Part shown: positions 6,584 to 60,148 of the stretch, in pieces
Layout of the letters: each line of letters begins with the position of its first letter
Numbering within the stretch: the stretch's first letter is position 1
Source of the DNA: Gaiellaceae bacterium
GTDB lineage: Bacteria > Actinomycetota > Thermoleophilia > Gaiellales > Gaiellaceae
DNA length: 64,000 nucleotides
Assembly: GCA_030446625.1 (NCBI GenBank)
Contig: JAUJMY010000011.1
Coordinates: 1-64,000, forward strand
Direction of reading: 5' to 3'
Notes under the pieces: generated by a model
Seen by the model: only the letters and a program-made list of their open reading frames with translations
Told to the model about the DNA's origin: nothing
Databases searched by the model: none
Position numbers and translations under genes: made by a program

Positions 6584-7358
6584 GGCGGCCATTCTGCTCG
6601 ACGTGGACGGCGTCCTCCACGTCTCGGGGACGGCGATTCCGGGGGCCGCCGAGGCTGTTCTGCGGCTCCGCGAGTCGGGGCACCGGCTGCGCTTCGTCAC
6701 GAACAACACGACGCGCTCGCGCGCCGACCTCGCCGCCGACCTGCGGAACCTCGGGCTCGAGCTCGACGACGCGGAGGTGCAGACGACACCGCGAGCGGCG
6801 GCACGGGCTCTCCAGGGGAAGCGCGTGCTCGCGCTGATCATGTCCGCGATCGTCCCCGACCTCGAGGGCGTCGATCTCGTCGGCGAGGGTGCGGACGCCG
6901 TCCTCGTGGGCGGCGCCGACGACAGCGCCGAGACGGGCCGCGTCTTCTCGTACATGAATCTCGCGCGCGCGTTCCACGAGCTCGACGCGGGCGCGGAGCT
7001 GTACTGCCTGCACAAGAACCGGTGGTGGCAGACGAGCCACGGCGCGCTGCTCGACGCGGGGGCGTTCGTGGTCGGGCTCGAGTACGCCACGCAGACGGAG
7101 GCGACGGTGCTCGGCAAGCCGAGCGCGACCTACTTCGACGCCGCGCTCGAGACGCTCGACGCGGACGCGTCGATGACGTGGATGGTCGGCGACGACTACG
7201 AAGCCGACATCGTCGGCGCGCAGTCGTGCGGGCTGAAGACGATCCTCGTCCGGACGGGCAAGTTCCGGCCGGACGCCGTGGAGCGGGCGGGGGTGACGCC
7301 CGACGCGATCATCAGCTCGATCGCGCAGCTGCCCGACTGGATCGAGCGCTCGCTCTAG
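6582..7358 (+). CDS. HAD-IIA family hydrolase
   Basis: A 258-residue cytoplasmic phosphatase. Motif I is LLDVDGVLHVSG at residues 5-16 with the nucleophilic first aspartate, motif II is FVTNNTT near residue 46, and motif IV is MVGDDYEADIVGA near residue 205. The cap placement fits subclass IIA (NagD-like and phospholysine phosphohistidine phosphatase relatives). The substrate is not predictable. I start at ATG 6582 because MAAILLDVDGV places motif I at the usual distance from the N-terminus. Its TAG overlaps the GTG of acpS by one base, the head of a four-gene overlapping string. Confidence 0.85.
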   Translation: MAAILLDVDGVLHVSGTAIPGAAEAVLRLRESGHRLRFVTNNTTRSRADLAADLRNLGLELDDAEVQTTPRAAARALQGKRVLALIMSAIVPDLEGVDLVGEGADAVLVGGADDSAETGRVFSYMNLARAFHELDAGAELYCLHKNRWWQTSHGALLDAGAFVVGLEYATQTEATVLGKPSATYFDAALETLDADASMTWMVGDDYEADIVGAQSCGLKTILVRTGKFRPDAVERAGVTPDAIISSIAQLPDWIERSL

Positions 7359-7732
7359 TGTCGCGCGTCGGCCTCGACTTGATCGAGATCGAGCGAATCC
7401 GCCGCGCGCTCGAGCGCTACCCGTCGTTCCGCGAGCGGTGCTTCACGCCCGCGGAGCGCGAGTACTGCGAGTCGCGCCCGAACCCGGCCGAGAGCTACGC
7501 GGGCCGCTTCGCGGGGAAGGAGGCGGTGGGCAAGGCGCTCGGCTTCGGCGTCGCGATGGCGTTCGCGTGGCGCGACATCGAGATCGTCGGCCGGCCGAAG
7601 CCGTCCGTGCGGCTGGCGGGGCGCGTCGCCGCGCGCGCCGAGCATCTGCGCGCGGGGGCGATCGACCTCTCGATGACGCACTCGCGTGAGCTCGCCGCAG
7701 CGATCTGCCTCGTCCGGGAGGCGGATGTTTGA
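7358..7732 (+). CDS. acpS: Holo-[acyl-carrier-protein] synthase
   Basis: A 124-residue enzyme that transfers phosphopantetheine from CoA to the acyl carrier protein. The N-terminal SRVGLDLIEIERIRRAL and the central YAGRFAGKEAVGKALG are the two AcpS signatures, containing the metal-binding Asp and Glu. The C-terminus IDLSMTHSRELAAA is also conserved. Translation starts at a GTG overlapping the upstream stop codon, and the end overlaps the start of nnr by eight bases. The acpS-nnr-alr order is common in actinobacteria. Confidence 0.95.
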   Translation: MSRVGLDLIEIERIRRALERYPSFRERCFTPAEREYCESRPNPAESYAGRFAGKEAVGKALGFGVAMAFAWRDIEIVGRPKPSVRLAGRVAARAEHLRAGAIDLSMTHSRELAAAICLVREADV

Positions 7733-9053
7733 GGCGCTCTACACGTCCGACGAGATGCGGGCGGCGGAGGAGGGGCACGACGTCGAGGCGCTGATGGAGC
7801 GGGCGGGGCGCGCGGTCGCGGAGCACGCGCTCCGGCGCTTCCCGGACGCGCAGCGCTTCGCCGTCGTCTGCGGCGGGGGTGCGAACGGCGGCGACGGCCG
7901 CATCGCTGCGCGCGTGCTTCGGGAGGCGGGTCGTCGGGCGGAGGAGACGGACGAGCTCGTCGGCGCGGACGTCGTCGTGGACGCGCTCTTCGGAACCGGC
8001 TTCCGCGGCACGCCGCGGCCGGACTCGGCCGAGCGGATCCGCACGATGAACGCGAGCGGCGCGCCGATCGTCTCGGTCGACATCGCCTCCGGCGTCGACG
8101 CGTCGACGGGCGAGGTGTGGGGCGACGCGGTCGGGGCCGCGCTCACCGTCAGCTTCCACGGGCGCAAGGTCGGGCACGTCGTCGCGCCGGGCCGCTTCCA
8201 CGCGGGAGAGACCGTCGTCGCGGACATCGGGCTCGGCTCGGCGACCACGCGACACCGGCTCGTCGCCGAGGGGATCCTGAGCGCGGTGCCGCGCAAGGCG
8301 GCCGCGGAGACGAAGTACTCCCGCTCGGTGCTCGTCGTCGGCGGCGCGCCCGGCATCAGGGGCGCCGCGGCTCTCGGGGCGCGCGCCGCCTTCCGCGCCG
8401 ACGCCGGCTACGTCGCGATCGCGGCGCCGGAGGAGTCGCTGCCGGTGCTCGAGACGCTCGTCCTCGAGGCGGTGAAGCGGCCGCTCGCCGACGCCGTCGA
8501 GCTCGTCGGCCGCGCGCGTGCGCTCGCGCTCGGCCCGGGCCTCGGGCGCGACGCGGAGCGGCGGGAGCTCGTCGCCGCGCTCCTGCGGGAGTCGGATCTA
8601 CCCGCGGTCGTGGATGCGGATGCCCTCTACGAGCTCGAGCCGGTGACGCGCAGCGCGCCGACGGTGCTGACGCCGCACGCGGGCGAGCTCGCGCGGCTGC
8701 TCGGGAAGGACTCTGCGTGGGTCGACGCGCACCGCCTCGCGGCGGTCGTGCAGGCGAGCGAACGCTACGCCTGCGTCGTCCTGCTCAAGGGGCCCGACAC
8801 GCTCGTCGCGGCGCCCGACGGCGCGGTGTGGGCGTGCGATGTCGCCGAGCCGGCCCTGGCGACCGCCGGGACCGGCGACGTCCTGACCGGGATCGTCGCG
8901 GCATTCCTCGCGAAGGGCCTCGACGCGCGCACGGCCGCGGCCGCGGCTGCGATCGCGCACGCGCGCGCCGCGCGCGCGGCCGCGAAGCCGTCGGGGCTGA
9001 TCGCGAGCGACGTCGTCGAGGCGCTCCCGCACGCCGTGCATGCCGCGGTCTGA
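7725..9053 (+). CDS. nnr: Bifunctional NAD(P)HX epimerase/dehydratase
   Basis: A 442-residue repair enzyme that restores NAD(P)H from its hydrated forms. The N-terminal epimerase domain (about residues 1-195) carries CGGGANGGDG and VVDALFGTGFRG. The C-terminal dehydratase domain (about 205-440) carries VVGGAPGIRGAAALGARAA, VDADALYEL, TPHAGELARL and the ATP-binding loop ATAGTGDVLTG. I place the start at ATG 7725, inside the end of acpS, because upstream codons in this frame fall within acpS. Its 3' end overlaps alr by 14 bp. Confidence 0.95.
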   Translation: MFEALYTSDEMRAAEEGHDVEALMERAGRAVAEHALRRFPDAQRFAVVCGGGANGGDGRIAARVLREAGRRAEETDELVGADVVVDALFGTGFRGTPRPDSAERIRTMNASGAPIVSVDIASGVDASTGEVWGDAVGAALTVSFHGRKVGHVVAPGRFHAGETVVADIGLGSATTRHRLVAEGILSAVPRKAAAETKYSRSVLVVGGAPGIRGAAALGARAAFRADAGYVAIAAPEESLPVLETLVLEAVKRPLADAVELVGRARALALGPGLGRDAERRELVAALLRESDLPAVVDADALYELEPVTRSAPTVLTPHAGELARLLGKDSAWVDAHRLAAVVQASERYACVVLLKGPDTLVAAPDGAVWACDVAEPALATAGTGDVLTGIVAAFLAKGLDARTAAAAAAIAHARAARAAAKPSGLIASDVVEALPHAVHAAV

Positions 9054-22611: not shown

Positions 22612-23814
22612 CTAGGCGGTGGCGGGCTCGGCCGCGACCTCCGTCGCGTCCGCGATCTCGCGCACGACCTCGACGATGTCGCGGTTCGCGTTGAAGATCC
22701 GCAGCTGCCGGTCGGAGCCGTTCCCGCGCGAGAGGATGTCCCGGACGCCTTCGAGCTCGCGGTCGGAGCCGAGCTCGCGCGCGTGCGGCTCGATCTCCCG
22801 CAGCGTCCGCCGCACGAGCTGCGCCACGGGCACGCGGTTGCGCCGCCCCGTCGCGAGGTCCATCACCGGCGCCTCGAGCCCGTAGCGCGCCGCGAGCCAC
22901 TTGTTCTCGGTCGTGAGGATGCGGTGGTACGACGGGATCTGCTCGCCGCGCTCGTACCGCTCGCAGTAGTGCTTGACGAGCGCCTGGCAGTACGCCGCGA
23001 GGGCGACGGCGTCCTCGACGCGCGTCACCGCGTCGCAGATCCGGATCTCGACCGTGCCCCACTTGGGGTGGAGCCGGACGTCCCACCAGATGTGCGTGTA
23101 GTCGGCGATGCAGCCGGTCTTCTCGAGCTGTCCGACGACCTCGGCGTAGTCCGCGTAGTCCCTGAAGCGCGGGGGCGGCCCCGAGCGCGGGAACGCCGCG
23201 AACACCATCTGCCTGCTCGAAGAGAGCCCCGTCGGCTCCCCGCGCCAGAACGGCGAGCTGCCCGAGAGCGCGAGCAGCGCCGCCAGGTCGGCGAGGAGCC
23301 CGTTCACGACCTGGATCGCCTTCTCCGCGTCGTCGACCGCGACGTGCACGTGCATCCCGAAGATGAGCTCGCGCCGCGCGACGTACTGGAGCTGGTCGAC
23401 CAGGTTGCGGTAGCGGTCGCGCGCGGTGATCCGCTGCCGCTCGAAGAGGCTGAACGGGTGCGTGCCCGCCGACCCGACGCGGAGCCCCTTCTCCTGCGCG
23501 ACGCACGTCACGTACCGCCGCAGCCGGCGCAGCTCGGCGTCGACGTCGGCCGCGTTGCGGCAGATCGGCGTCGCGATCTCGAGCACCGACTGCATGAGTT
23601 CGGCGTTGATCCGGTCCTCGAGCTCGTGCCCGGCGACCGCGGCGAGAACGGTGTCGATGTGCTGGACGAGGTCGAAGGTCTCGCCGTCGAGCAGCATGTA
23701 CTCCTCCTCGACGCCGAGGGTGTACGGCTCGCCCTGCCCGAACTTGTGGTCGAGGACGCTGCCGCCCGCCGCAAATCCGTTGCCCGTGATCGACGGCGGG
23801 TAGATCTGCTTCAC
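22612..23814 (-). CDS. Carboxylate-amine ligase, glutamate-cysteine ligase type 2 (YbdK-like)
   Basis: A 400-residue GCS2 family enzyme. The N-terminal YTLGVEEEYMLLDGETFDL is the signature acidic metal and nucleotide site. HVHVAVDD near residue 155, RQMVFAAFPRSG near 200 and the C-terminal TTENKWLAARYGLEAPV with EIRICDAVTRVEDA are all typical. Members ligate amino acids to carboxylates, and some have weak glutamate-cysteine ligase activity. The true substrate here is not known. The GTG start at 23814 overlaps the RidA stop codon (GTGA), so the two genes are translationally coupled. Confidence 0.9.
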   Translation of the reverse strand: MKQIYPPSITGNGFAAGGSVLDHKFGQGEPYTLGVEEEYMLLDGETFDLVQHIDTVLAAVAGHELEDRINAELMQSVLEIATPICRNAADVDAELRRLRRYVTCVAQEKGLRVGSAGTHPFSLFERQRITARDRYRNLVDQLQYVARRELIFGMHVHVAVDDAEKAIQVVNGLLADLAALLALSGSSPFWRGEPTGLSSSRQMVFAAFPRSGPPPRFRDYADYAEVVGQLEKTGCIADYTHIWWDVRLHPKWGTVEIRICDAVTRVEDAVALAAYCQALVKHYCERYERGEQIPSYHRILTTENKWLAARYGLEAPVMDLATGRRNRVPVAQLVRRTLREIEPHARELGSDRELEGVRDILSRGNGSDRQLRIFNANRDIVEVVREIADATEVAAEPATA

Positions 23815-45041: not shown

Positions 45042-46787
45042 ATGACGAGGCGCGCAACGGTCGCGGCAGTGGCGGGCGCGGCGGCCCTCGTGGGCGCTCT
45101 CGCGGGCGGCGCGAGTGACGCCTCGCACGCCGCGCAACAGCAGCAGCAGACGCGCCCGAACGTCCTCCTCATCGAGACCGACGACCAGACGGTCGAGTCG
45201 CTGCGCGTGATGCAGAACGTCCAGCGCCTGCTCGCGGCTCAGGGGACGACGTTCGTGAACAGCTTCGCGTCGTTCGCGCTCTGCTGCCCGTCGCGCGCGA
45301 CGGCGATCACCGGCCAGTACGCCCACACGAACGGCGTGCTCGGGAACCGGCTCCCCGAGGGCGGGTACTACAAGCTCGACAACACGAACACGCTCCCGGT
45401 GTGGCTCCAGCGCGCGGGGTACTACACGGCCCACATCGGGAAGTACCTGAACGAGTACGGGACGCGGAACCCGAACGAGGTGCCGCCGGGCTGGACGGAG
45501 TGGCACGGCTCCGTCGACCCGTCGACGTACCGGTTCTACGACTACACGCTGAACGAGGGCGGCAAGCTCGTGAACTACGGCGAGCGGCCGCAGGACTACC
45601 AGGCAGACGTCTACGCCGCGAAGGCGGTCGACCTCGTCCGCCGCCGCGCGCCGCAGGCGCAGCCGTTCTTCCTCTGGCTCGCGTTCCTCGCGCCGCACAG
45701 CGGCGGGCCGCGCGAGCCGGACGACCCGCGCACCGGAGGAGCGCGCCGCGGAGCGGGTCTCGCGACACCGGTCCCGGCCCCGCGCCACCGGAACCGCTTC
45801 GCGTCGGAGCCGCTCCCGCAGTCGCCCGCGTTCAACGAAGCCGACGTCTCCGACAAGCCCGTCGCGATCCGCAACCGCCGCGTGCTCCCGCCCGCGCAGA
45901 TCGCGGCGATCCGCGAGAACTACCAGCAGCGCCTCGAGTCGCTGCTCGCGGTCGACGAGGCGGTCGGGCGGCTCGTCGCCGAGCTCGAGCGGCTCGACGA
46001 GCTCGAGCGCACGCTGATCGTCTTCACGTCCGACAACGGCTTCTTCCACGGCGAGCACCGCGTCCCGGCGGGCAAGGTGCTCCTCTACGAGCCGTCGATC
46101 CGCGTGCCGCTGATCGTGCGCGGGCTCGGGTTCCCGCGCGGGCGGCGCCTGGCGCAGCCGGTCGCGAACATCGACCTCGCGCCCACGATCGTCGACGTCG
46201 CGGAGGCAAGGGCGGGTCGCCGGATGGACGGTCGCTCGCTCGTGCCGCTCCTGCGCGATCCAGGTCTCTCGTGGGGGCGCGACATTCTCATCGAGAACGG
46301 TCCCGGAGCCGGCAACTTCGCCGCGGTGCGGTCGCCGCGCTACCTCTACGCCGAGTACGCGAGCGGCGACCGCGAGCTCTACGACCTCGCCGCGGATCCG
46401 TACGAGCTGACGAGCCGGCACGGCGACCGTGCGCTGGCGCGCCTCCGCGGCGACCTCGCGCGGCGCGTGGCATTGCTGCGGCGGTGCGCGGGCGACGCGT
46501 GCCGTCGCGGCCCGCGTCTCGCCGCCACGTTCCGCACGGACGGTCGCGGCTGCGTCGCCTCGCGCTTCGGGGCTGCCCTCGGCGGGACGGACGCGTGGCT
46601 CCTCACGCGTGTCGAGTTCTTCGTGGGCGGCAAGCGCCGCGCGGCGGACATGCGACGGCCGTTCGCGGCGAGCCTGCCGCGCCGGCTCCTGCTCGCGCCG
46701 CGCTTCCGCACGAAGCTCCGCCTGCGCGCCTTCCTGCGCGACGGCCGCGTCGTCACCTACGACCGGCTGCTGCGCGCCTGCGGCTAG
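45042..46787 (+). CDS. Secreted sulfatase family protein
   Basis: A 581-residue protein with an N-terminal signal sequence (RRATVAAVAGAAALVGALAGGASDASHA). The sulfatase core begins RPNVLLIETDDQT, with the formylglycine motif C-C-P-S-R at residues 81-85 (Cys81 is the modified residue), AHIGKYLNEYG, and FTSDNGFFHGEHR. The C-terminal 120 residues form an Ig-like domain (RVEFFVGGKRRAADMRRPF). Members cleave sulfate or phosphate esters outside the cell. A formylglycine-generating enzyme would be needed and is not in this window. Confidence 0.9.
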   Translation: MTRRATVAAVAGAAALVGALAGGASDASHAAQQQQQTRPNVLLIETDDQTVESLRVMQNVQRLLAAQGTTFVNSFASFALCCPSRATAITGQYAHTNGVLGNRLPEGGYYKLDNTNTLPVWLQRAGYYTAHIGKYLNEYGTRNPNEVPPGWTEWHGSVDPSTYRFYDYTLNEGGKLVNYGERPQDYQADVYAAKAVDLVRRRAPQAQPFFLWLAFLAPHSGGPREPDDPRTGGARRGAGLATPVPAPRHRNRFASEPLPQSPAFNEADVSDKPVAIRNRRVLPPAQIAAIRENYQQRLESLLAVDEAVGRLVAELERLDELERTLIVFTSDNGFFHGEHRVPAGKVLLYEPSIRVPLIVRGLGFPRGRRLAQPVANIDLAPTIVDVAEARAGRRMDGRSLVPLLRDPGLSWGRDILIENGPGAGNFAAVRSPRYLYAEYASGDRELYDLAADPYELTSRHGDRALARLRGDLARRVALLRRCAGDACRRGPRLAATFRTDGRGCVASRFGAALGGTDAWLLTRVEFFVGGKRRAADMRRPFAASLPRRLLLAPRFRTKLRLRAFLRDGRVVTYDRLLRACG

Positions 46788-49380: not shown

Positions 49381-50658
<1,278 letters not shown>

Positions 50659-50665
50659 CGGTTCG

Positions 50666-50887
50666 CTAGCGCTCCCTGACGCGCCGGCCGACGACAGCTG
50701 CGTCGGGCCGTCGCCACAGTCCGAGGCTGACCTCGAACCCAGTCACGCGGGGCCGCGTGTAGGGGCGATAGACGCCGTCGATCGCGCGCCGGACCAGCTC
50801 CGCCAGCGAGAGGCCCGACCGTTCGGCTTCGTCGACGAGCAACGCGTGCTGGCGATCCGTGAGCGTGATCTGTGTCCGGCGGCTCAT
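50666..50887 (-). CDS. Ribbon-helix-helix DNA-binding protein
   Basis: A 73-residue protein. The N-terminal RTQITLTDRQHALLVDEAERSGLSLAELVRRAIDGVY has the strand-helix-helix pattern of RHH (CopG/Arc-like) repressors. The C-terminal part (RPRVTGFEVSLGLWRRPDAAV) may be a dimer tail. Such genes often encode antitoxins, but there is no toxin gene next to it; neighbours are clpX and GGT. A perfect palindrome GGTGTACACC lies nine bases before its start (50896-50905). Confidence 0.75.
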   Translation of the reverse strand: MSRRTQITLTDRQHALLVDEAERSGLSLAELVRRAIDGVYRPYTRPRVTGFEVSLGLWRRPDAAVVGRRVRER

Positions 50888-50895
50888 CTGATGTA

Positions 50896-50905
50896 GGTGT
50901 ACACC
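50896..50905. promoter_or_regulatory. Candidate RHH operator palindrome
   Basis: GGTGTACACC is a perfect 10-bp inverted repeat, nine bases upstream of the RHH gene start and about 70 bp upstream of the GGT gene start. RHH repressors usually bind short inverted repeats near their own start, so this is a plausible autoregulatory site that could also control the divergent GGT/LanC-like operon. A single copy is only suggestive. Confidence 0.35.
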
Positions 50906-50976
50906 GTCGTCGCAACGCCTCGTGTCGCGGAAGCGAGCACTGCGTGTGCCGAGAGCGTGCGCACTAGAGTGGCGCG

Positions 50977-52722
50977 GTGTTCACGACGCGCCCCGAGCTC
51001 CGCGGCACCTTCGGCATGGTCGCGTCGACGCACTGGCTCGCCACCGCGGCGGGGATGGCGACCCTCGAGCGCGGCGGGAACGCGTTCGACGCGGCGGTCG
51101 CGACCGGGCTCTCGCTCCAGGTCGTCGAGCCGCACCTCAACGGCCCGGGCGGCGACTTGCCCGCCGTCTTCTACAGCGCCGAGCGCGACGAGGTGCTCGT
51201 GCTGTGCGCACAGGGTCCGGCGCCCGCGGCCGCGACGATTCCGGCATTCCGGGACCTCAGCCTCGATCTGATCCCGGGCACGGGTCTGCTGCCCGCTGTC
51301 GTGCCCGGCGCGTTCGGCGGCTGGATGTTGCTGCTCCGCGAGTTCGGCACGCTCCGCATCGAGGACGTCCTCGAGCACGCGATCGGGTACGCCGAGTCCG
51401 GGTTCCCGCTCGTGCCGGCGATCAGCGCCTCGATCGCGAACGTCGAGCAGGTGTTCCGCGACGAGTGGCCGACCTCGGCCGAGGTCTTCCTCCCGGACGG
51501 CGTCCCGCAGCCGCGGACGCTCTTCCGGAACCGCGATCTCGCCGCGACGTACCGCCGGATCGTCGCCGAGTCGCGCGGCGGCAGCCGCGAACAGGAGATC
51601 GACCGGGCACTCGACGCCTACTACCGCGGCTTCGTCGCGGACGCGATCGCGTCGTTCATCGAGCGCGCGGAGGTGATGGACAGCTCGGGCCGGCGCCATC
51701 GCGGGCTCCTCTCGGGCGACGACCTGGCGTCGTGGCAGGCGACGCTCGAGTCCCCGCTCAGCCTCGACTACCACGACCACACCGTGTTCAAGAGCGACGT
51801 CTGGGCGCAGGCGCCGGTCTTCCTCCAGCAGCTCGCGCTCCTCGAAGGCTTCGACCTGGCGGAGATGGGGCGGGGAAGCGCGGACTTCGTCCACACCGTC
51901 GTCGAATGCGCGAAGCTCGCCTTCGCGGACCGGGAGGCGTGGTACGGCGACCCGGCTTTCGTCGACGTCCCGGTCGCAGAGCTCCTCTCCCGCGCGTACG
52001 CAGAGGAGCGGCGCGCGCTCGTCGGCGAAGAGGCATCGGCGGAGTTGCGGCCCGGCTCACCCGGTGGGCGCGAGCCGCGCCTTCCGGCGCCGGTCGCCGG
52101 GGCTCTCGCCGCGGGCATCGGCGAGCCCACGCGGGCGAGCGGCGACACGTGCCACGTCGACACGGTCGACCGCCACGGGAACATCGTCTCGGCGACGCCG
52201 AGCGGCGGGTGGCTCTGGAGCTCGCCCGTCGTGCCGGGACTCGGGTTCCCGCTCGGGACGCGCGCGCAGATGTTCTGGCTCGAGGAGGGGCTCCCGAACT
52301 CGCTCGAGCCGCGGAAGCGGCCGCGGACGACGCTCTCCCCGTCGCTCGCGTTCCGCGGCGGCGATCCATATCTCGCCTTCGGCACGCCGGGCGGCGACCA
52401 GCAGGACCAGTGGACGCTCGTCTTTTTCCTCCACCACGTGCACTTCGGGATGGATCTGCAGGCGGCGATCGACGCGCCGATGTTCCACACGAACCACTTC
52501 CCGAGCTCGTTCTATCCGCGAGACGCGCACCCGCGGCAGATCGAGGTCGAGGCGCGATTCGAGCCGGGCGTCGTGGAGGAGTTGCGCGCGCGCGGCCACG
52601 ACATCGAGCTCACGGGGGAGTGGTCGCTCGGTCGGATCAGCGCCGCCGCGCGTGATCGCGACGGGCAGCTCACGGCAGCGGCCAACCCGCGCGGGATGCA
52701 GGGGTACGCCGCGGGGCGCTAA
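50977..52722 (+). CDS. Gamma-glutamyltransferase family protein
   Basis: A 581-residue Ntn-hydrolase precursor. The self-cleavage and nucleophile Thr is Thr391 in SGDTCHVDTVDRHGNIVSATPSGGW, with the substrate pocket EPHLNGPGGDLPAVFY and the C-terminal PRTTLSPSLAFRGGDPYLAFGTPGGDQQDQ. Family enzymes cleave gamma-glutamyl bonds of glutathione and similar compounds. No signal peptide is seen after GTG 50977, which suggests a cytoplasmic member. The TAA overlaps the ATG of the LanC-like gene by one base (TAATG), so they are translated together. Confidence 0.9.
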   Translation: MFTTRPELRGTFGMVASTHWLATAAGMATLERGGNAFDAAVATGLSLQVVEPHLNGPGGDLPAVFYSAERDEVLVLCAQGPAPAAATIPAFRDLSLDLIPGTGLLPAVVPGAFGGWMLLLREFGTLRIEDVLEHAIGYAESGFPLVPAISASIANVEQVFRDEWPTSAEVFLPDGVPQPRTLFRNRDLAATYRRIVAESRGGSREQEIDRALDAYYRGFVADAIASFIERAEVMDSSGRRHRGLLSGDDLASWQATLESPLSLDYHDHTVFKSDVWAQAPVFLQQLALLEGFDLAEMGRGSADFVHTVVECAKLAFADREAWYGDPAFVDVPVAELLSRAYAEERRALVGEEASAELRPGSPGGREPRLPAPVAGALAAGIGEPTRASGDTCHVDTVDRHGNIVSATPSGGWLWSSPVVPGLGFPLGTRAQMFWLEEGLPNSLEPRKRPRTTLSPSLAFRGGDPYLAFGTPGGDQQDQWTLVFFLHHVHFGMDLQAAIDAPMFHTNHFPSSFYPRDAHPRQIEVEARFEPGVVEELRARGHDIELTGEWSLGRISAAARDRDGQLTAAANPRGMQGYAAGR

Positions 52723-53933
52723 TGGAGCTGTACAGCCCGGAGGCGCACGAGCCACTCGCGGGCGCGCCGTGGGACGAAGAGCGCGTGCGGGACGCCGTTG
52801 CGGCCATCGTCGCCGACGCCGACGGGGCGTACGACGGCGACGCGTTGTGGCCTGTCGCGGATGAGTGGGACGCCGGCGGCGGCCGAGCGCGGCTCCCGCT
52901 CACGCGGCTCTACTCGGGCGCGTCCGGCGTCGCCTGGGCGCTCGACGCACTCCGTCGTCGCGGGCATGCGGAGACCCGCCTCGATCTCCCGGCCGTCGCG
53001 GCTCGCGCGCTCGAGGCGTGGCGGGCCGACCCCGACACACCCGAGCGCCTCGAGCCGCCGGTCGTAACGCACGCGAGTCTCTACTTCGGCGAGACGGGCG
53101 TGCTGCTCGTCGCGTGGCTCCTCGCGCCGGCTGCGGACGTCGCCGACGCGCTGCACGCGCGCGTGCGCGAGAACCGCGCCAACGAGGCGAACGAGCTCAT
53201 GGTCGGCGCGCCCGGGACGATGGTGGCGGCGCGCGCGATGCTCGAGTGGACGGGGGAGGAGCGCTGGGCCGAGGCTTGGCGCGAGAGCGCCGAGGAGCTG
53301 TGGCGGCGCCGCTACTGGGACGGCTTCTGGACCTACCCGCCCTACGGGAAGTCGCCGGGGGCCTCGCACGGGATCGGGACGAACACAGGCATCCTCCTCG
53401 CCGGCGGCGACCTCCTCCCGCAGGAACGGCACGACGAGCTGCGGCGGGGAACGGCGGAAGCGCTCGCGCGGACGGCGGTGGTCGAGAACGGCCGCGCCAA
53501 CTGGCCGATGGCCGTCGAGGACTGCGGGCAGCTCGTCGCGTGGGACGGCCGGATCCGGCTCCAGTGGTGCCATGGAGGCGCCGGCGTCGTCGCGTCGGCC
53601 GCGCCTTACCTGGAGGAGGAGCTGCTGCTCGCGGGCGCCGAGCTCGTCTGGGAAGCGGGGCCGCCGAGCATGGAGAAGGGGCCGGGCATCTGCCACGGGA
53701 CGGCCGGAAGCGGCTACGCGCTGCTCAAGGTGTTCGAGCGCACGGGCGACGAGCTGTGGCTGGAGCGCGCGAGGCGGTTCGCGATGCACGCGCTCGGACA
53801 GGTCGAGCGCTGGCGCGCGCAGCGCGGACGCGGGCGCTACTCGCTGTGGACGGGCGACCTGGGGGCGGCGCTCTACGCGGCGGACTGCCTCGCCGGCCGC
53901 GCGCAGATCCCGATCGTCGACGCGCTGGCGTGA
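52722..53933 (+). CDS. Stand-alone LanC-like (lanthionine synthetase C family) protein
   Basis: A 403-residue alpha-toroid protein. Repeats include LYSGASGVAWALDAL, YFGETGVLLVAWLL, ELMVGAPGTMVAARAML, GASHGIGTNTGILLAGG and DLGAALYAADCL. Zinc ligands appear as Cys283 (QWCHGGAGVV) and Cys324-His325 (GICHGTAGSGYALL), the conserved C...CH set of LanC and LanCL proteins. No LanB/LanM dehydratase or precursor peptide is nearby. LanC-like proteins may add thiols to dehydroamino acids, and eukaryotic LanCL proteins bind glutathione. Overlap with the GGT gene suggests a joint role; this is inferred. Confidence 0.85.
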   Translation: MELYSPEAHEPLAGAPWDEERVRDAVAAIVADADGAYDGDALWPVADEWDAGGGRARLPLTRLYSGASGVAWALDALRRRGHAETRLDLPAVAARALEAWRADPDTPERLEPPVVTHASLYFGETGVLLVAWLLAPAADVADALHARVRENRANEANELMVGAPGTMVAARAMLEWTGEERWAEAWRESAEELWRRRYWDGFWTYPPYGKSPGASHGIGTNTGILLAGGDLLPQERHDELRRGTAEALARTAVVENGRANWPMAVEDCGQLVAWDGRIRLQWCHGGAGVVASAAPYLEEELLLAGAELVWEAGPPSMEKGPGICHGTAGSGYALLKVFERTGDELWLERARRFAMHALGQVERWRAQRGRGRYSLWTGDLGAALYAADCLAGRAQIPIVDALA

Positions 53934-54086
53934 AGGGCCGCGCGCCGATTTGCGGCGCGAGGCGTGCGCGGCCATACTTGCCGCATAGTCGCTGGCTGAT
54001 CTGATCTGCGGGCCCCGGCGGCCCCACCGCTTCGAGCGCAAGGTCGACGGCGCCTTCCTGCGCAGCGAGGGGACTACGATCGCGTG

Positions 54087-56504
54087 ATGGAGCCGCTGTA
54101 CAAGCCGCAGGGCGTCGAGGAGCGCTGGCAGCGGACGTGGGAGGAGGAGGGGCTGTACAGGCCCGACGTCGCGTCCGACCGCACGCCGTTCGTCGTCGCC
54201 CATCCGCCGCCGAACGTGACGGGCGACCTGCACATGGGCCACGCGCTCCAGCTCTCGCTCGCAGACACGCTCGTGCGCTGGTACCGGATGCGCGGCTTCA
54301 ACACCCTTTTCCAGCCCGGTTACGACCACGCCGGAATCTCGACGCAGAACGCGGTCGAGAAGCACCTGGCGAGGGAGGGGAAGACGCGGCACGACCTCGG
54401 CCGCGAGGCGTTCGAGGCGCGCGTGTGGGAGTGGCTCCACGAGTACGGCGGCAAGATCATGCAGCAGTTCCGGCGCATCGGCGCCTCGCTCGACTACAGC
54501 CGCGAGCGCTTCACGATGGACGAGGACTACGTGCGCGCGGTGACGCGGTTCTTCGTCCACCTGTACCGCAAGGGGTGGATCTACCGCGCGAACCGGATCA
54601 TCAACTGGTGCCCGTTCCACCAGACGTCGCTGTCGGACCTCGAGCTCGAGCACGTCGAGGTCGACGACGCGCTGACGTACGTCCGCTACCCGCTCGTCGA
54701 CGGCTCGGGGCACGTGACGATCGCGACGGCGCGGCCGGCGACGATCGTCGCGGACGTCGCGGTCGCCGTGCACCCGGACGACGAGCGGTACCGCGACGTG
54801 ATCGGGAAGGACGTCGTCGTGCCGTTCGTGGAGCGGCGCGTCCCCGTCATCGCGGACGAGCGCGTCGAGCGCGCGTTCGGCACGGGCGCGCTCAAGGTGA
54901 CGCCGGGACACGACCCGCTCGACTACGAGATCGGCCGCGACAACGCGCTGCCCGAGCTGACGGTGATCGGCGCGGACGGGCGGATGAACGACGACGCCGG
55001 CAAGCTCGCCGGGCTGATGCAGCAGGAGGCGGATGAGCGCATCCTGTCCTGGCTGCGGGAGCGTGGGCAGCTCGAGAAGCGCGAGGCGCACAGGCATGCC
55101 GTCGCACTGTGCGATCGGTGCAAGAGCCGCATCGAGCCCCGGATCTCGCTCCAGTGGTGGTGCTCGATGAAGGAGCTGAAGGAGCCGGCGCTCGAGGCGC
55201 TCCGCTCGGGCCGCGTCCGCTTCCACCCGGAGGCGCAGCACCGCTTCGCGATCGAGTCGCTCGAGGACGCCCCCGACTGGAACATCTCGCGCCAGCTCTG
55301 GTGGGGCCACCAGCTCCCGCTCTGGGAGTGCCCCGGCGGGCACGCGACGGTGGAGGAGACCGAGCCGGCGGCGTGCGCGCAGTGCGGCTCCTCCGAGCTG
55401 ACGCGCTCGACCGACGTCCTCGACACCTGGTTCTCGTCCGCGCTCTGGCCGTTCGCGACGCTCGGCTGGCCCGACGAGACGCCCGAGCTCCGTGCCTTCT
55501 ACCCCGGGAGCCTGAACACGACTGATCGCCAGATCATCCGGCTCTGGGAGAACAGGATGATCTTCGCGGGGCTCGAGTTGCTCGGCGAGGTCCCGTTCCG
55601 CGACGTCGTCATCCACTCGACGCTCAACGCGCCCGACGGCCGGCGGATGTCGAAGAGCCTCGGCACGGGCATCGACCCGCTGGAGGCGATCGACCGGCAC
55701 GGCGCCGACGCGACGCGCTACGGGCTCCTCAAGATGTCGTCGACGCAGGACGTGCGCTTCTCGATCGGTGCGATCGAGGAAGGGCACAAGCTCGCGAACA
55801 AGCTCTGGAACGTCTCGCGGCTGGTCCTCGCGCACGCGGAGGGCGCCGCGCCGGAGTTCCGCCCGCGCGACGTGGAAGAGCGCTGGATCCTCACGCGGAT
55901 GGACGCGACACGCGCAGAGGTCGAGCAGCGGCTCGGGCGGTTCGAGTTCGCGGCCGCGGTGACGGCGCTCTACCACTTCACCTTCGACGACTTCTGCGAC
56001 TGGTACGCCGAGGCGATCAAGCCGCGGCTGAACACGGGCGACGCCGACGCGGTCGCGACGGCGCTCGCCGCGCTCGAGCGCCTGCTCGCGCTGCTGCATC
56101 CGGTGATGCCGCACGTGACGGAGGAGATCTGGACGAACCTGCCGGAGCGCGAGACGCGCCTGATCGTCGCACGCTGGCCGGAGCCCGACGCGTCCTACGC
56201 GGACGCGGTCGCCGCGCTCGACCGCGTGCAGCAGGCAGCAGCGATCTTCCGGCGTAGCGGCGTCCTCGTGACGCTGCACGACGACGAGGAGCGGAGGATC
56301 TTCGACGCCGTCGTACGCCCCGAGCGCGCGAAGGTGAACGGCAACGCTGCGGTCGAGCTCGAGCGCCTGCGCAAGGAGGTCGCGCGGCTGGAGGCGAAGC
56401 TCGCGAACGACCAGTTCGTCGCGAACGCTCCCGCCGAGGTCGTCCAGGCCGAGCGGGAGAAGCTCGCGCGGTACCGATCCGAGCTCGATGCCCTCTCAGG
56501 CTGA
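54087..56504 (+). CDS. valS: Valyl-tRNA synthetase
   Basis: An 805-residue class Ia synthetase charging tRNA-Val. The HIGH motif is PPNVTGDLHMGHAL near residue 44, the KMSKS motif is GRRMSKSLGTG near residue 517, and RPATIVADVAVAV marks the editing domain. The C-terminus is the ValS-specific coiled coil (AAVELERLRKEVARLEAKLANDQFVANAPAEVVQAEREKLARYR). GTG 54084 and ATG 54087 are consecutive in frame, as in ileS. The 3' end overlaps folC by 17 bp. Confidence 0.97.
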   Translation: MEPLYKPQGVEERWQRTWEEEGLYRPDVASDRTPFVVAHPPPNVTGDLHMGHALQLSLADTLVRWYRMRGFNTLFQPGYDHAGISTQNAVEKHLAREGKTRHDLGREAFEARVWEWLHEYGGKIMQQFRRIGASLDYSRERFTMDEDYVRAVTRFFVHLYRKGWIYRANRIINWCPFHQTSLSDLELEHVEVDDALTYVRYPLVDGSGHVTIATARPATIVADVAVAVHPDDERYRDVIGKDVVVPFVERRVPVIADERVERAFGTGALKVTPGHDPLDYEIGRDNALPELTVIGADGRMNDDAGKLAGLMQQEADERILSWLRERGQLEKREAHRHAVALCDRCKSRIEPRISLQWWCSMKELKEPALEALRSGRVRFHPEAQHRFAIESLEDAPDWNISRQLWWGHQLPLWECPGGHATVEETEPAACAQCGSSELTRSTDVLDTWFSSALWPFATLGWPDETPELRAFYPGSLNTTDRQIIRLWENRMIFAGLELLGEVPFRDVVIHSTLNAPDGRRMSKSLGTGIDPLEAIDRHGADATRYGLLKMSSTQDVRFSIGAIEEGHKLANKLWNVSRLVLAHAEGAAPEFRPRDVEERWILTRMDATRAEVEQRLGRFEFAAAVTALYHFTFDDFCDWYAEAIKPRLNTGDADAVATALAALERLLALLHPVMPHVTEEIWTNLPERETRLIVARWPEPDASYADAVAALDRVQQAAAIFRRSGVLVTLHDDEERRIFDAVVRPERAKVNGNAAVELERLRKEVARLEAKLANDQFVANAPAEVVQAEREKLARYRSELDALSG

Positions 56505-58216: not shown

Positions 58217-58636
58217 GTGGCCGCGGAACGAACGCTCATCCTCATCAAGCCCGACGCCGTCGAGCGTTCGCTCGCGGGCGAGATCCTCGCGCGGATCGAG
58301 CGCCGGGGGTTCGCCGTCCGGGCGGCCAAGCTGCTCCGCGTCGGCCGCGAGCTCGGCGAAGAGCACTACGGCGAGCACCGCGAGAAGCCGTTCTTCGGCG
58401 AGCTCGTCGACTTCATCACCTCCGCTCCCACGTGGGCGCTCGTCGTCGAGGGCGAGGGCGCGATCGCCACGATGCGCAAGACGATCGGCGCGACGAACCC
58501 GGCAAACGCCGAGCCGGGCACGATCAGGGGAGACCTCGCGACGTCGATGCCGAACAACCTGGTGCACGGCTCCGACTCGCCGGAGTCGGCGGAGCGCGAG
58601 ATCGCGCTCTGGTTCGCCGACGATGAGCTCGTCTGA
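58217..58636 (+). CDS. ndk: Nucleoside diphosphate kinase
   Basis: A 139-residue enzyme transferring gamma-phosphate between nucleotides through a phosphohistidine. The catalytic His117 is in [21 protein letters not shown], and the N-terminal [14 protein letters not shown] and [18 protein letters not shown] are diagnostic. GTG 58217 is 12 bp after the zinc-ribbon gene. Its end overlaps the first methyltransferase gene by 14 bp. Confidence 0.97.
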
Positions 58637-59396
58637 GGCGACCGAGGCCGCTTCGCGCAACCGCGCGCTCTGGACGCGGCTGAACGCCAAGTTCGCGGAC
58701 GCCAACGCGCGTGCGCAGTGGGCACGCGAGGAGATCGGGTGGGGTCTCTGGAGCATCCCGGAGTCGGACGTGCGTGTGCTGCCGGAGCTCGAGGGCCTCG
58801 ATGTCGTCGAGCTCGGGTGTGGAACCGCGTACGTCTCATCCTGGCTCGCCCGCCGCGGTGCGCGACCGGTCGCCCTCGACGTCACCCCGGCGCAGCTCGA
58901 CACCGCGCGCCGGATGCAGGCACAGACGGGGATCGAGTTCGCGCTCGTCGAGGCAGACGCCGTTGCCACGGGCTTGCCGGACGCGAGCTTCGACTTGGCG
59001 ATCTCGGAGTACGGCGCGTCGATCTGGTGCGACCCCGAGCTGTGGATTCGCGAGGCTGCGCGGCTCCTGCGATCGCGTGGAACGCTCCTGTTCCTGTGCG
59101 ACTCGACGCTGCTGACTCTGTGCGGCGCGGACGACGATCATGTGCAGGAACGGCTCGTGCGACCGCAGTTCGGGATGTACCGCTTCGAGGATGCCGAGGG
59201 CGGCGGGGTCGAGTTCCACCTCGCGCACGGCGAGTGGATCCGCATCCTGCGCGACAACGGCTTCGTCGTCGAACAACTGATTGAGGTGCAGGCCCCGGAG
59301 GATGCGGCGACGCACGAGATCTACGACTACGTCACGCCGGAATGGGGCCGGAGGTGGCCGGCAGAGGAGATCTGGAAGGCCCGAAAGTGGAGCTGA
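58623..59396 (+). CDS. Class I SAM-dependent methyltransferase (copy 1)
   Basis: A 257-residue methyltransferase. The SAM-binding motif I is [36 protein letters not shown] near residue 60, and motif II-like [23 protein letters not shown] near residue 122. The N-terminal [33 protein letters not shown] and the C-terminal [23 protein letters not shown] are shared with the next gene. The substrate is unknown. The gene overlaps ndk and the second copy, so all three belong to one string. Confidence 0.88.
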
Positions 59397-60148
59397 CGGG
59401 TTATGTCGCGCGGAACCGCGAGGCGTGGACGCGGTCGAACGCGGCGTACACGGATGCACGCGCCGCCGCGGACTGGGCCGACGCCGAAATCCGCTGGGGA
59501 ATGTGCAACGCGCTCGAGGCGGACGTCCAGGTGCTGCCGGACGTGCGCGGGAAGGAGATCGTCGAGCTCGGCTGCGGCACCGGCTACTTCGGCGCGCGGC
59601 TGAAGCGCGCCGGCGCGAGGCGCGTTGTCGGCGTCGACATCACTCCTGCACAGCTCGCGACGGCGCAGCGGATGAACGAGGAGTTCGGGCTCGGCCTCGA
59701 GTTCGTCGAGGCGAACGCCGAGGAGACAGGGCTGCCGGACGAGTCGTCCGACCTTGCGGTCTCGGAGTACGGCGCGTCGATCTGGTGCGATCCGTACAGG
59801 TGGATCCCGGAGGCGGCGCGACTGTTGCGCCGCGGCGGCGAGCTCGTGTTCCTGCGCAACTCGACGCTCGCCATGCTGTGCGCGACGGAGGACGAGAAGA
59901 CGAGCGCGACGCTCCAGCGACCGCAGCGCGGCCTGCACCGGCTCGACTGGGCCGACGACGGGACGAGCGAGTTCCACCTCGGGCACGGCGACTGGGTTCG
60001 GCTCCTCCGCGGCAGCGGATTCGACATCCTCGACCTCGTCGAGGTCTACGCGGGGCCGCGGACGCCCGACCACACGTACTACTCGTTCTCGCGCGAATGG
60101 GCGGAACGGTGGCCGTGGGAAGAGATCTGGCGGGCGCGGAAGCGATGA
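59387..60148 (+). CDS. Class I SAM-dependent methyltransferase (copy 2, paralog)
   Basis: A 253-residue paralog of the preceding protein. The same blocks appear in the same order: [95 protein letters not shown] and the tail WAERWPWEEIWRARKR. GTG 59387 overlaps the first copy by ten bp. This is a tandem duplication that has diverged, with one copy perhaps acquiring a different substrate. Confidence 0.87.
   Translation: MELTGYVARNREAWTRSNAAYTDARAAADWADAEIRWGMCNALEADVQVLPDVRGKEIVELGCGTGYFGARLKRAGARRVVGVDITPAQLATAQRMNEEFGLGLEFVEANAEETGLPDESSDLAVSEYGASIWCDPYRWIPEAARLLRRGGELVFLRNSTLAMLCATEDEKTSATLQRPQRGLHRLDWADDGTSEFHLGHGDWVRLLRGSGFDILDLVEVYAGPRTPDHTYYSFSREWAERWPWEEIWRARKR

What the first reader, a model, noticed from the sequence alone, without database searches (positions are those of the whole stretch)
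50977..53933. GGT and stand-alone LanC-like protein translated as a coupled pair
The two genes overlap by one base (TAATG). LanC-like proteins without a dehydratase are poorly understood in bacteria; eukaryotic LanCL proteins bind glutathione and can add it to dehydroamino acids, and GGT cleaves gamma-glutamyl thiols. A thiol-adduct processing or detoxification system is possible.
Basis: inference. Interest (0 to 1): 0.6.

Follow-up and report, generated by a model that had tools for sequence, protein, structure and literature searches.

The report
Unrelated GGT-like hydrolase and LanCL-type neighbour
The two genes really are adjacent and overlapping, but the pairing is found in no relative searched and the "GGT" is not a glutathione enzyme; the LanC-like gene, however, belongs to a little-noticed group of bacterial proteins that are the closest relatives we found of the human enzymes that disarm damaged, reactive amino acids in proteins.

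Summary
In detail: a 581-aa GGT-family gene (50977-52722) and a 403-aa stand-alone LanC-like gene (52722-53933) overlap by one base. The coupled-system reading does not. In 14 relatives the GGT gene sits in the same clpX-to-valS/folC slot without LanC. LanC-like genes of relatives lie elsewhere, beside unrelated genes; none of 80 loci outside this genome adjoins this GGT type. The "GGT" is about 60% identical to LmbA2991 of Streptomyces lincolnensis, a GGT homologue that cleaves a C-C bond. It keeps nucleophile Thr391 but lacks the gamma-glutamyl-binding Arg and Asp. No glutathione or mycothiol pathway was found. The LanC-like protein keeps the zinc ligands, acid His and enolate His of LANCL1. 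Its dehydratase-free family (Gaiellales, Solirubrobacterales, Burkholderiales, Myxococcota) groups with eukaryotic LanCL, apart from class I LanC and LanL (support 100/98-99; LanCL+LanL rejected, p 0.0025). The residues that hold the glutamyl end of glutathione in LANCL1 are replaced throughout. Best reading: an independent bacterial LanCL-type thia-Michael enzyme, probably quenching dehydroamino acids with a thiol other than glutathione, inserted behind an unrelated LmbA-like hydrolase gene. The chemistry is inferred, not shown.

The parts
50977..52722 (+). LmbA-like Ntn-hydrolase of the gamma-glutamyltranspeptidase family (PF01019); predicted self-cleavage D390/T391; no evident signal peptide by eye
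   Evidence: PF01019 390 bits; best PDB 6J3A/6J3I, E 1e-196; LmbA2991 recognised by TCHLDVVDRW/T421; about 60% identity; T391, Q79, M432, T451, T452 invariant in 15 orthologues
52147..52149 (+). codon of T391, predicted N-terminal nucleophile after autoproteolysis
   Evidence: position; alignment to LmbA2991 T421
52722..53933 (+). stand-alone LanC-like protein of the bacterial LanCL-type clade (PF05147)
   Evidence: LANCL2 E 1e-33, LANCL1 2e-32; Foldseek best hits LanCL1/2, GCR2; tree
53367..53369 (+). H216 codon, equivalent of LANCL1 His219 (enolate-protonating acid)
   Evidence: invariant, 35 of 35 bacterial homologues
53568..53573 (+). C283 (zinc ligand) and H284 (equivalent of LANCL1 His277) codons
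53691..53696 (+). C324 and H325 codons, the other two zinc ligands
52720..52724 (+). TAATG overlap, possible stop-restart translational coupling
49381..50658 (+). clpX, conserved upstream neighbour of the LmbA-like gene (not part of a GGT/LanC system)
54084..56504 (+). valS, conserved downstream neighbour of the LmbA-like gene in relatives

Best explanation
Two functionally independent genes that became neighbours in this lineage. The upstream gene is a vertically kept LmbA-like Ntn-hydrolase in the clpX-to-valS slot. It is predicted to cut itself between D390 and T391 and to use Thr391 as nucleophile on a substrate other than a gamma-glutamyl compound (oxalyl-type C-C or amide hydrolysis, by analogy). 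The downstream gene is a bacterial LanCL-type zinc enzyme that moved in behind it and is probably read by stop-restart from the same transcript. Zinc held by C283, C324 and H325 activates a thiol, H284 steadies the enolate and H216 protonates it, so that the thiol adds to dehydroalanine or dehydrobutyrine in peptides or proteins. The most likely role is quenching such reactive residues with a thiol other than glutathione. Shown: gene anatomy, lack of conserved linkage, residue conservation, kinship to LanCL, no dehydratase and no GSH or mycothiol pathway found by search. Inferred: the chemistry, the substrates, the role.
For: LmbA-like orthologues (64-79% identity) occur in about 18 family genomes; 14 fetched stretches show clpX and/or valS/folC beside them, none with LanC inside. 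Nearest LanC-like relatives (72 to 42% identity) lie on other contigs beside unrelated genes. 80 named loci in several phyla have no LmbA-like GGT nearby and no common neighbour. About 60% identity to LmbA2991; R109 and D445 of the B. licheniformis GGT align with Q79 and M432, invariant in orthologues. Zinc ligands and acid His in 35/35, enolate His in 28/35, K319 in 34/35 bacterial homologues; H274 to Q 35/35, E374 to T 34/35, D367 not kept (residue roles from PMC9934072). AlphaFold pLDDT 90, best fold matches LanCL1/2 and GCR2. No GshB, MshB or MshC.
Against: Genomes with LmbA-like GGT more often have the LanC-like gene than expected (10 against 5, Fisher p 0.003, not corrected for kinship). 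Two other loci (L133, L139, one shared synteny) have a remote GGT (about 30% identity) convergent to the LanC-like gene, and L144 one 3.4 kb away. No biochemistry on this LanC-like clade was found in the papers searched. No second genome of the genus is held, so conservation within the genus could not be tested.
Confidence: 0.7

Rival explanations
1. One reading: a two-enzyme system in which the LanC-like protein adds a gamma-glutamyl thiol to dehydroamino acids and GGT trims the adduct.
For: Overlapping genes; LanCL kinship; weak genome-level co-occurrence; YbdK-type GCS2 genes exist in the genome, one in the window.
Against: No conserved linkage; GGT of LmbA type without gamma-glutamyl-binding residues; glutathione's glutamyl-end contacts lost in the LanC-like family; no GshB.
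Confidence: 0.06
2. The LanC-like protein is a cyclase of an undescribed peptide natural product, with the dehydratase of an unknown type and unlinked.
For: PMC7268733 notes 1392 unclassified LanC-like proteins, some near transporters and proteases; LanC chemistry is retained.
Against: No LanB in the genome or in 19 of 22 carrier genomes tested; no LanM or LanL dehydratase part within the 80 loci apart from one weak kinase hit; neighbours are ordinary housekeeping or metabolic genes; tree places it with LanCL, not with class I LanC or LanL.
Confidence: 0.12
3. The alpha/alpha-toroid is used for a different zinc-thiol reaction or a binding role (not addition to dehydroamino acids), for example conjugation of small electrophiles together with a neighbouring methyltransferase.
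For: SAM methyltransferases flank the gene in 9 of 121 neighbours against at most 2 of 124 controls; peptide-binding contacts of LANCL1 were not tested; 7 of 35 members change the enolate His.
Against: All catalytic residues of the thia-Michael reaction are kept in the window protein.
Confidence: 0.15

Closest known systems
LmbA2991 of Streptomyces lincolnensis (PDB 6J3A/6J3I; PMC5519988)
   Same: About 60% identity over the full length, D-T self-cleavage motif, Gln and Met in place of the gamma-glutamyl-binding Arg and Asp, same TTL[ST]P motif.
   Different: No lincomycin-type gene cluster was seen around the gene; located between clpX and valS; substrate unknown.
Eukaryotic LanCL1/LanCL2 and plant GCR2
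   Same: Stand-alone; zinc ligands, acid His, enolate His, Lys that binds the Gly end of GSH; best PDB matches by profile and fold; same clade.
   Different: H274, D367 and E374 (glutathione contacts) replaced by Q, mostly R, and T; about 19% identity over the aligned model; bacterial, and sporadic among relatives.
Class IV LanL, class II LanM, class I LanC cyclases
   Same: LANC_like fold and zinc site.
   Different: No kinase/lyase or dehydratase partner; outside their clades; NCBIfam LanL 73.5 bits against cut-off 650.
Canonical gamma-glutamyltranspeptidase (E. coli, B. licheniformis)
   Same: Family PF01019 and Thr nucleophile.
   Different: Scores 271 bits against the TIGR00066 cut-off of 358; gamma-glutamyl-binding residues replaced.

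Membership tests
gamma-glutamyltransferase (TIGR00066 equivalog) | score above curated cut-off | tested here: not met
   271.4 bits, cut-off 357.85
gamma-glutamyltransferase (TIGR00066 equivalog) | Arg and Asp that bind the gamma-glutamyl group | tested here: not met
   R109 and D445 of 4Y23 align with Q and M; Q79 and M432 invariant in orthologues; the roles of R109/D445 are from general knowledge
LmbA-like Ntn-hydrolase | overall homology and D-T autoproteolysis motif | tested here: met
   about 60% identity, D390-T391
LmbA-like Ntn-hydrolase | C-C bond cleavage activity | not testable with these tools
   needs enzyme assay
LanCL (eukaryotic-type stand-alone LanC-like) | no dehydratase in protein or neighbourhood | tested here: met
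   403-aa protein; no LanB in genome; no LanM/LanL part in the window
LanCL (eukaryotic-type stand-alone LanC-like) | zinc ligands C-C-H, acid His, enolate His | tested here: met
   C283, C324, H325, H216, H284
LanCL (eukaryotic-type stand-alone LanC-like) | glutathione-binding residues | tested here: not met
   K317 kept; H274 to Q, D367 to R, E374 to T; R4 and R364 not assessable
LanCL (eukaryotic-type stand-alone LanC-like) | phylogenetic grouping with LanCL | tested here: met
   100/99 and 100/98 support; LanCL+LanL clade rejected p 0.0025; limited sampling, partial eukaryotic sequences
LanCL (eukaryotic-type stand-alone LanC-like) | thiol addition to Dha/Dhb | not testable with these tools
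   needs enzyme assay
class IV LanL synthetase (NF038150) | kinase and lyase domains, score above 650 | tested here: not met
   73.5 bits, cyclase part only
conserved GGT/LanC-like operon | adjacency kept in relatives | tested here: not met

The most novel reading that the evidence does not exclude
The dehydratase-free bacterial LanC-like proteins, of which this gene is one, are the nearest prokaryotic kin of eukaryotic LanCL; scavenging of dehydroamino acids by a zinc-activated thiol then predates eukaryotes and is widespread in bacteria, with a thiol other than glutathione.
Probability: 0.35. Interest if true: 0.72.

Novelty: new variant of a known kind. Interest (0 to 1): 0.38.

Why it matters
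PMC11251773 (2024) reports that eukaryotic LanC-like proteins group apart from all bacterial sequences it used, and that it could not be decided whether damage repair or lanthipeptide synthesis is the older function. A bacterial, dehydratase-free clade that joins LanCL in the tree gives a direct way to test that. It also suggests that bacteria may have a proteome-repair enzyme for dehydrated residues that uses an unidentified thiol. The GGT/LanC pairing itself carries no such weight.

Tried and rejected
GGT-LanC as a conserved operon: rejected by synteny in relatives. GGT as a glutathione enzyme: rejected on curated cut-off, residues and missing GSH pathway. MshC hit on contig C11: it is cysteinyl-tRNA synthetase (TIGR00435 above cut-off). 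GCS2 hits: three YbdK-family proteins, none passing a gshA equivalog cut-off. A common partner of the LanC-like gene across 80 loci: none, apart from a modest excess of SAM methyltransferases. The convergent GGTs in L133/L139 share one synteny, are a different subfamily and lie on the opposite strand, so they were not counted as support. Paper searches for the PDB codes 6J3A/6J3I found nothing; the structure was identified from its sequence motif and residue number in PMC5519988. A first tree with four long LanM/LanL rows was rebuilt without them and with more LanL.

Full report
Observation. The two ORFs are real and placed as stated: 50977-52722 (+), 581 aa, and 52722-53933 (+), 403 aa, with TAA and ATG sharing base 52722. 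They match PF01019 (390 bits) and PF05147 (74.4 bits) and have coding-type base composition. Overlap is not special: 13 of 37 neighbouring co-directional pairs called in the window overlap. In other genomes the LanC-like gene overlaps by 4 to 25 bases with upstream genes for DUF3830, methyltransferases or acyl-CoA dehydrogenase.

What the 'GGT' is. It fails the GGT equivalog cut-off (271 against 358 bits). Its best solved relatives are 6J3A and 6J3I (E 1e-196). The sequence TCHLDVVDRW and nucleophile T421 identify them as LmbA2991 of S. lincolnensis and its Thr-to-Ala form (PMC5519988), about 60% identical. That paper shows LmbA2991 cleaving a C-C bond after autoproteolysis between D420 and T421, and states that actinobacterial homologues are not part of glutathione metabolism. 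Residues that bind the gamma-glutamyl group in the B. licheniformis enzyme (R109, D445; roles from general knowledge) are Q79 and M432 here, as in LmbA2991, and are invariant in 15 orthologues together with T391.

Synteny. In the same family (which includes Gaiella: contig C1 of G043 has the same length as the Gaiella sp. contig behind L122), about 18 of 61 genomes have an LmbA-like gene at 64-79% identity. Fourteen of the fetched stretches keep recognisable neighbours (10 with clpX on one side and valS or folC on the other, 4 with one side before the contig ends or the order changes); none has a LanC gene inside. LanC-like orthologues (42-72% identity) lie on other contigs, next to unrelated genes. 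In G006, the genome of the closest LanC-like relative (72%), both genes exist but on different contigs. Because clpX and valS flank the window's pair as in relatives, an assembly chimera is unlikely. Genome-level co-occurrence is weak: 10 genomes with both, 8 with GGT only, 7 with LanC only, p 0.003, uncorrected for kinship.

The LanC-like protein. Zinc ligands C283, C324, H325 and acid H216 are invariant in 35 bacterial homologues. The enolate-stabilising His (LANCL1 His277, which PMC9934072 says is always His in eukaryotes and mostly Tyr in class I LanC) is His in 28 of 35. The Lys that binds the Gly end of glutathione is kept in 34 of 35. The contacts to the Cys amide and the glutamyl end are not kept: H274 to Gln in 35/35, E374 to Thr in 34/35, D367 to Arg in most (roles from PMC9934072). 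The same pattern in Proteobacteria, many of which make glutathione (general knowledge), suggests that the thiol is another one.

Kinship. A profile of the family matches LANCL2, LANCL1 and GCR2 at E 1e-33 to 4e-27, LanM LicM2 at 3e-7, NisC at 2e-4 and a Ser/Thr-kinase-type synthetase (8car, CuvL) at 0.06. AlphaFold (pLDDT 90, pTM 0.92) with Foldseek ranks LanCL2, LanCL1 and GCR2 first. Maximum-likelihood trees unite eukaryotic LanCL with the bacterial stand-alone clade at 100/99 and 100/98, and the alternative LanCL+LanL is rejected (p 0.0025). Caveats: eukaryotic rows are the PDB-aligned parts only, branches are long, references are mostly actinobacterial. PMC7268733 placed human LanCL with class IV, but left unclassified LanC-like proteins out of its tree.

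Distribution. The search for related loci gave 207 relatives; the 80 kept come from Gaiellales and Solirubrobacterales MAGs, Burkholderiales, Nannocystis, Kofleriaceae, Lysobacter and others. No neighbour is shared widely. LanB is absent from 19 of 22 carrier genomes and from this one; in the complete Nannocystis chromosome (L145) it lies about 6 Mb away. LanM or LanL dehydratase parts are not found in the loci; the one weak hit, in L149, lies in the kinase half of LanL.

Thiols. MshB not found, the MshC hit is CysS, GshB not found, three GCS2 proteins are YbdK-type. The genome is 93% complete, so absence is provisional.

Mechanism. Most likely the LanC-like enzyme uses zinc to make a thiolate that adds to Dha/Dhb; H284 and H216 assist. 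Its likely job is quenching dehydrated residues in proteins, with a thiol other than glutathione. This is inferred from residues and kinship. The LmbA-like enzyme is a separate hydrolase. Co-transcription may tie their expression levels, but nothing found shows a shared pathway.

Noticed in passing
L102, L114, L122, L126, L132, L140, L153, L175, next to the LanC-like gene: Class I SAM methyltransferases (PF08241/PF13649) are immediate neighbours of the LanC-like gene in 9 of 121 neighbours against at most 2 of 124 distant controls, several with 4-base overlap.
   Followed up: partly
L147, L156, L161: In Rubrivivax-type genomes the LanC-like gene lies between a PP2C phosphatase gene and a tagF-like gene of a type VI secretion locus.
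   Followed up: no
L100 (G019), LanC 7250-8404, tig from 6150 down: In another genome of the family a LanC-like gene of a different subclade lies about 1.1 kb upstream of tig-clpP-clpX, the same proteostasis locus as in the window but at its other end; chance is not excluded.
   Followed up: partly
window 22612-23814 (-): YbdK-family carboxylate-amine ligase (GCS2); the genome has three such genes but no GshB match.
   Followed up: partly
window 49381-56504 and loci L084-L098: The LmbA-like hydrolase gene is kept between clpX and valS in many genomes of the family, suggesting a housekeeping role for an LmbA-type enzyme outside antibiotic clusters.
   Followed up: partly
L133 about 6590-6700: A near-perfect inverted repeat with arms of about 37 bases (CCCTTTATTGGGACGGTTCTACAGAACCGGTCTATTC) lies between the LanC-like gene and a convergent remote GGT gene; looks like a MITE or REP-type element.
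   Followed up: no
L003 (G006), L191 and L200 (G144): Class IV LanL lanthionine synthetases above the NCBIfam cut-off in a genome of the window's family (L003) and another actinobacterium (L191), plus a LanL/LanKC-type relative (L200).
   Followed up: no
window 45042-46787: Sulfatase/arylsulfatase-family protein upstream of a tRNA gene and tig.
   Followed up: no
window 58623-60148: Two consecutive overlapping class I methyltransferase genes downstream of folC, part of the gene order conserved in relatives.
   Followed up: no
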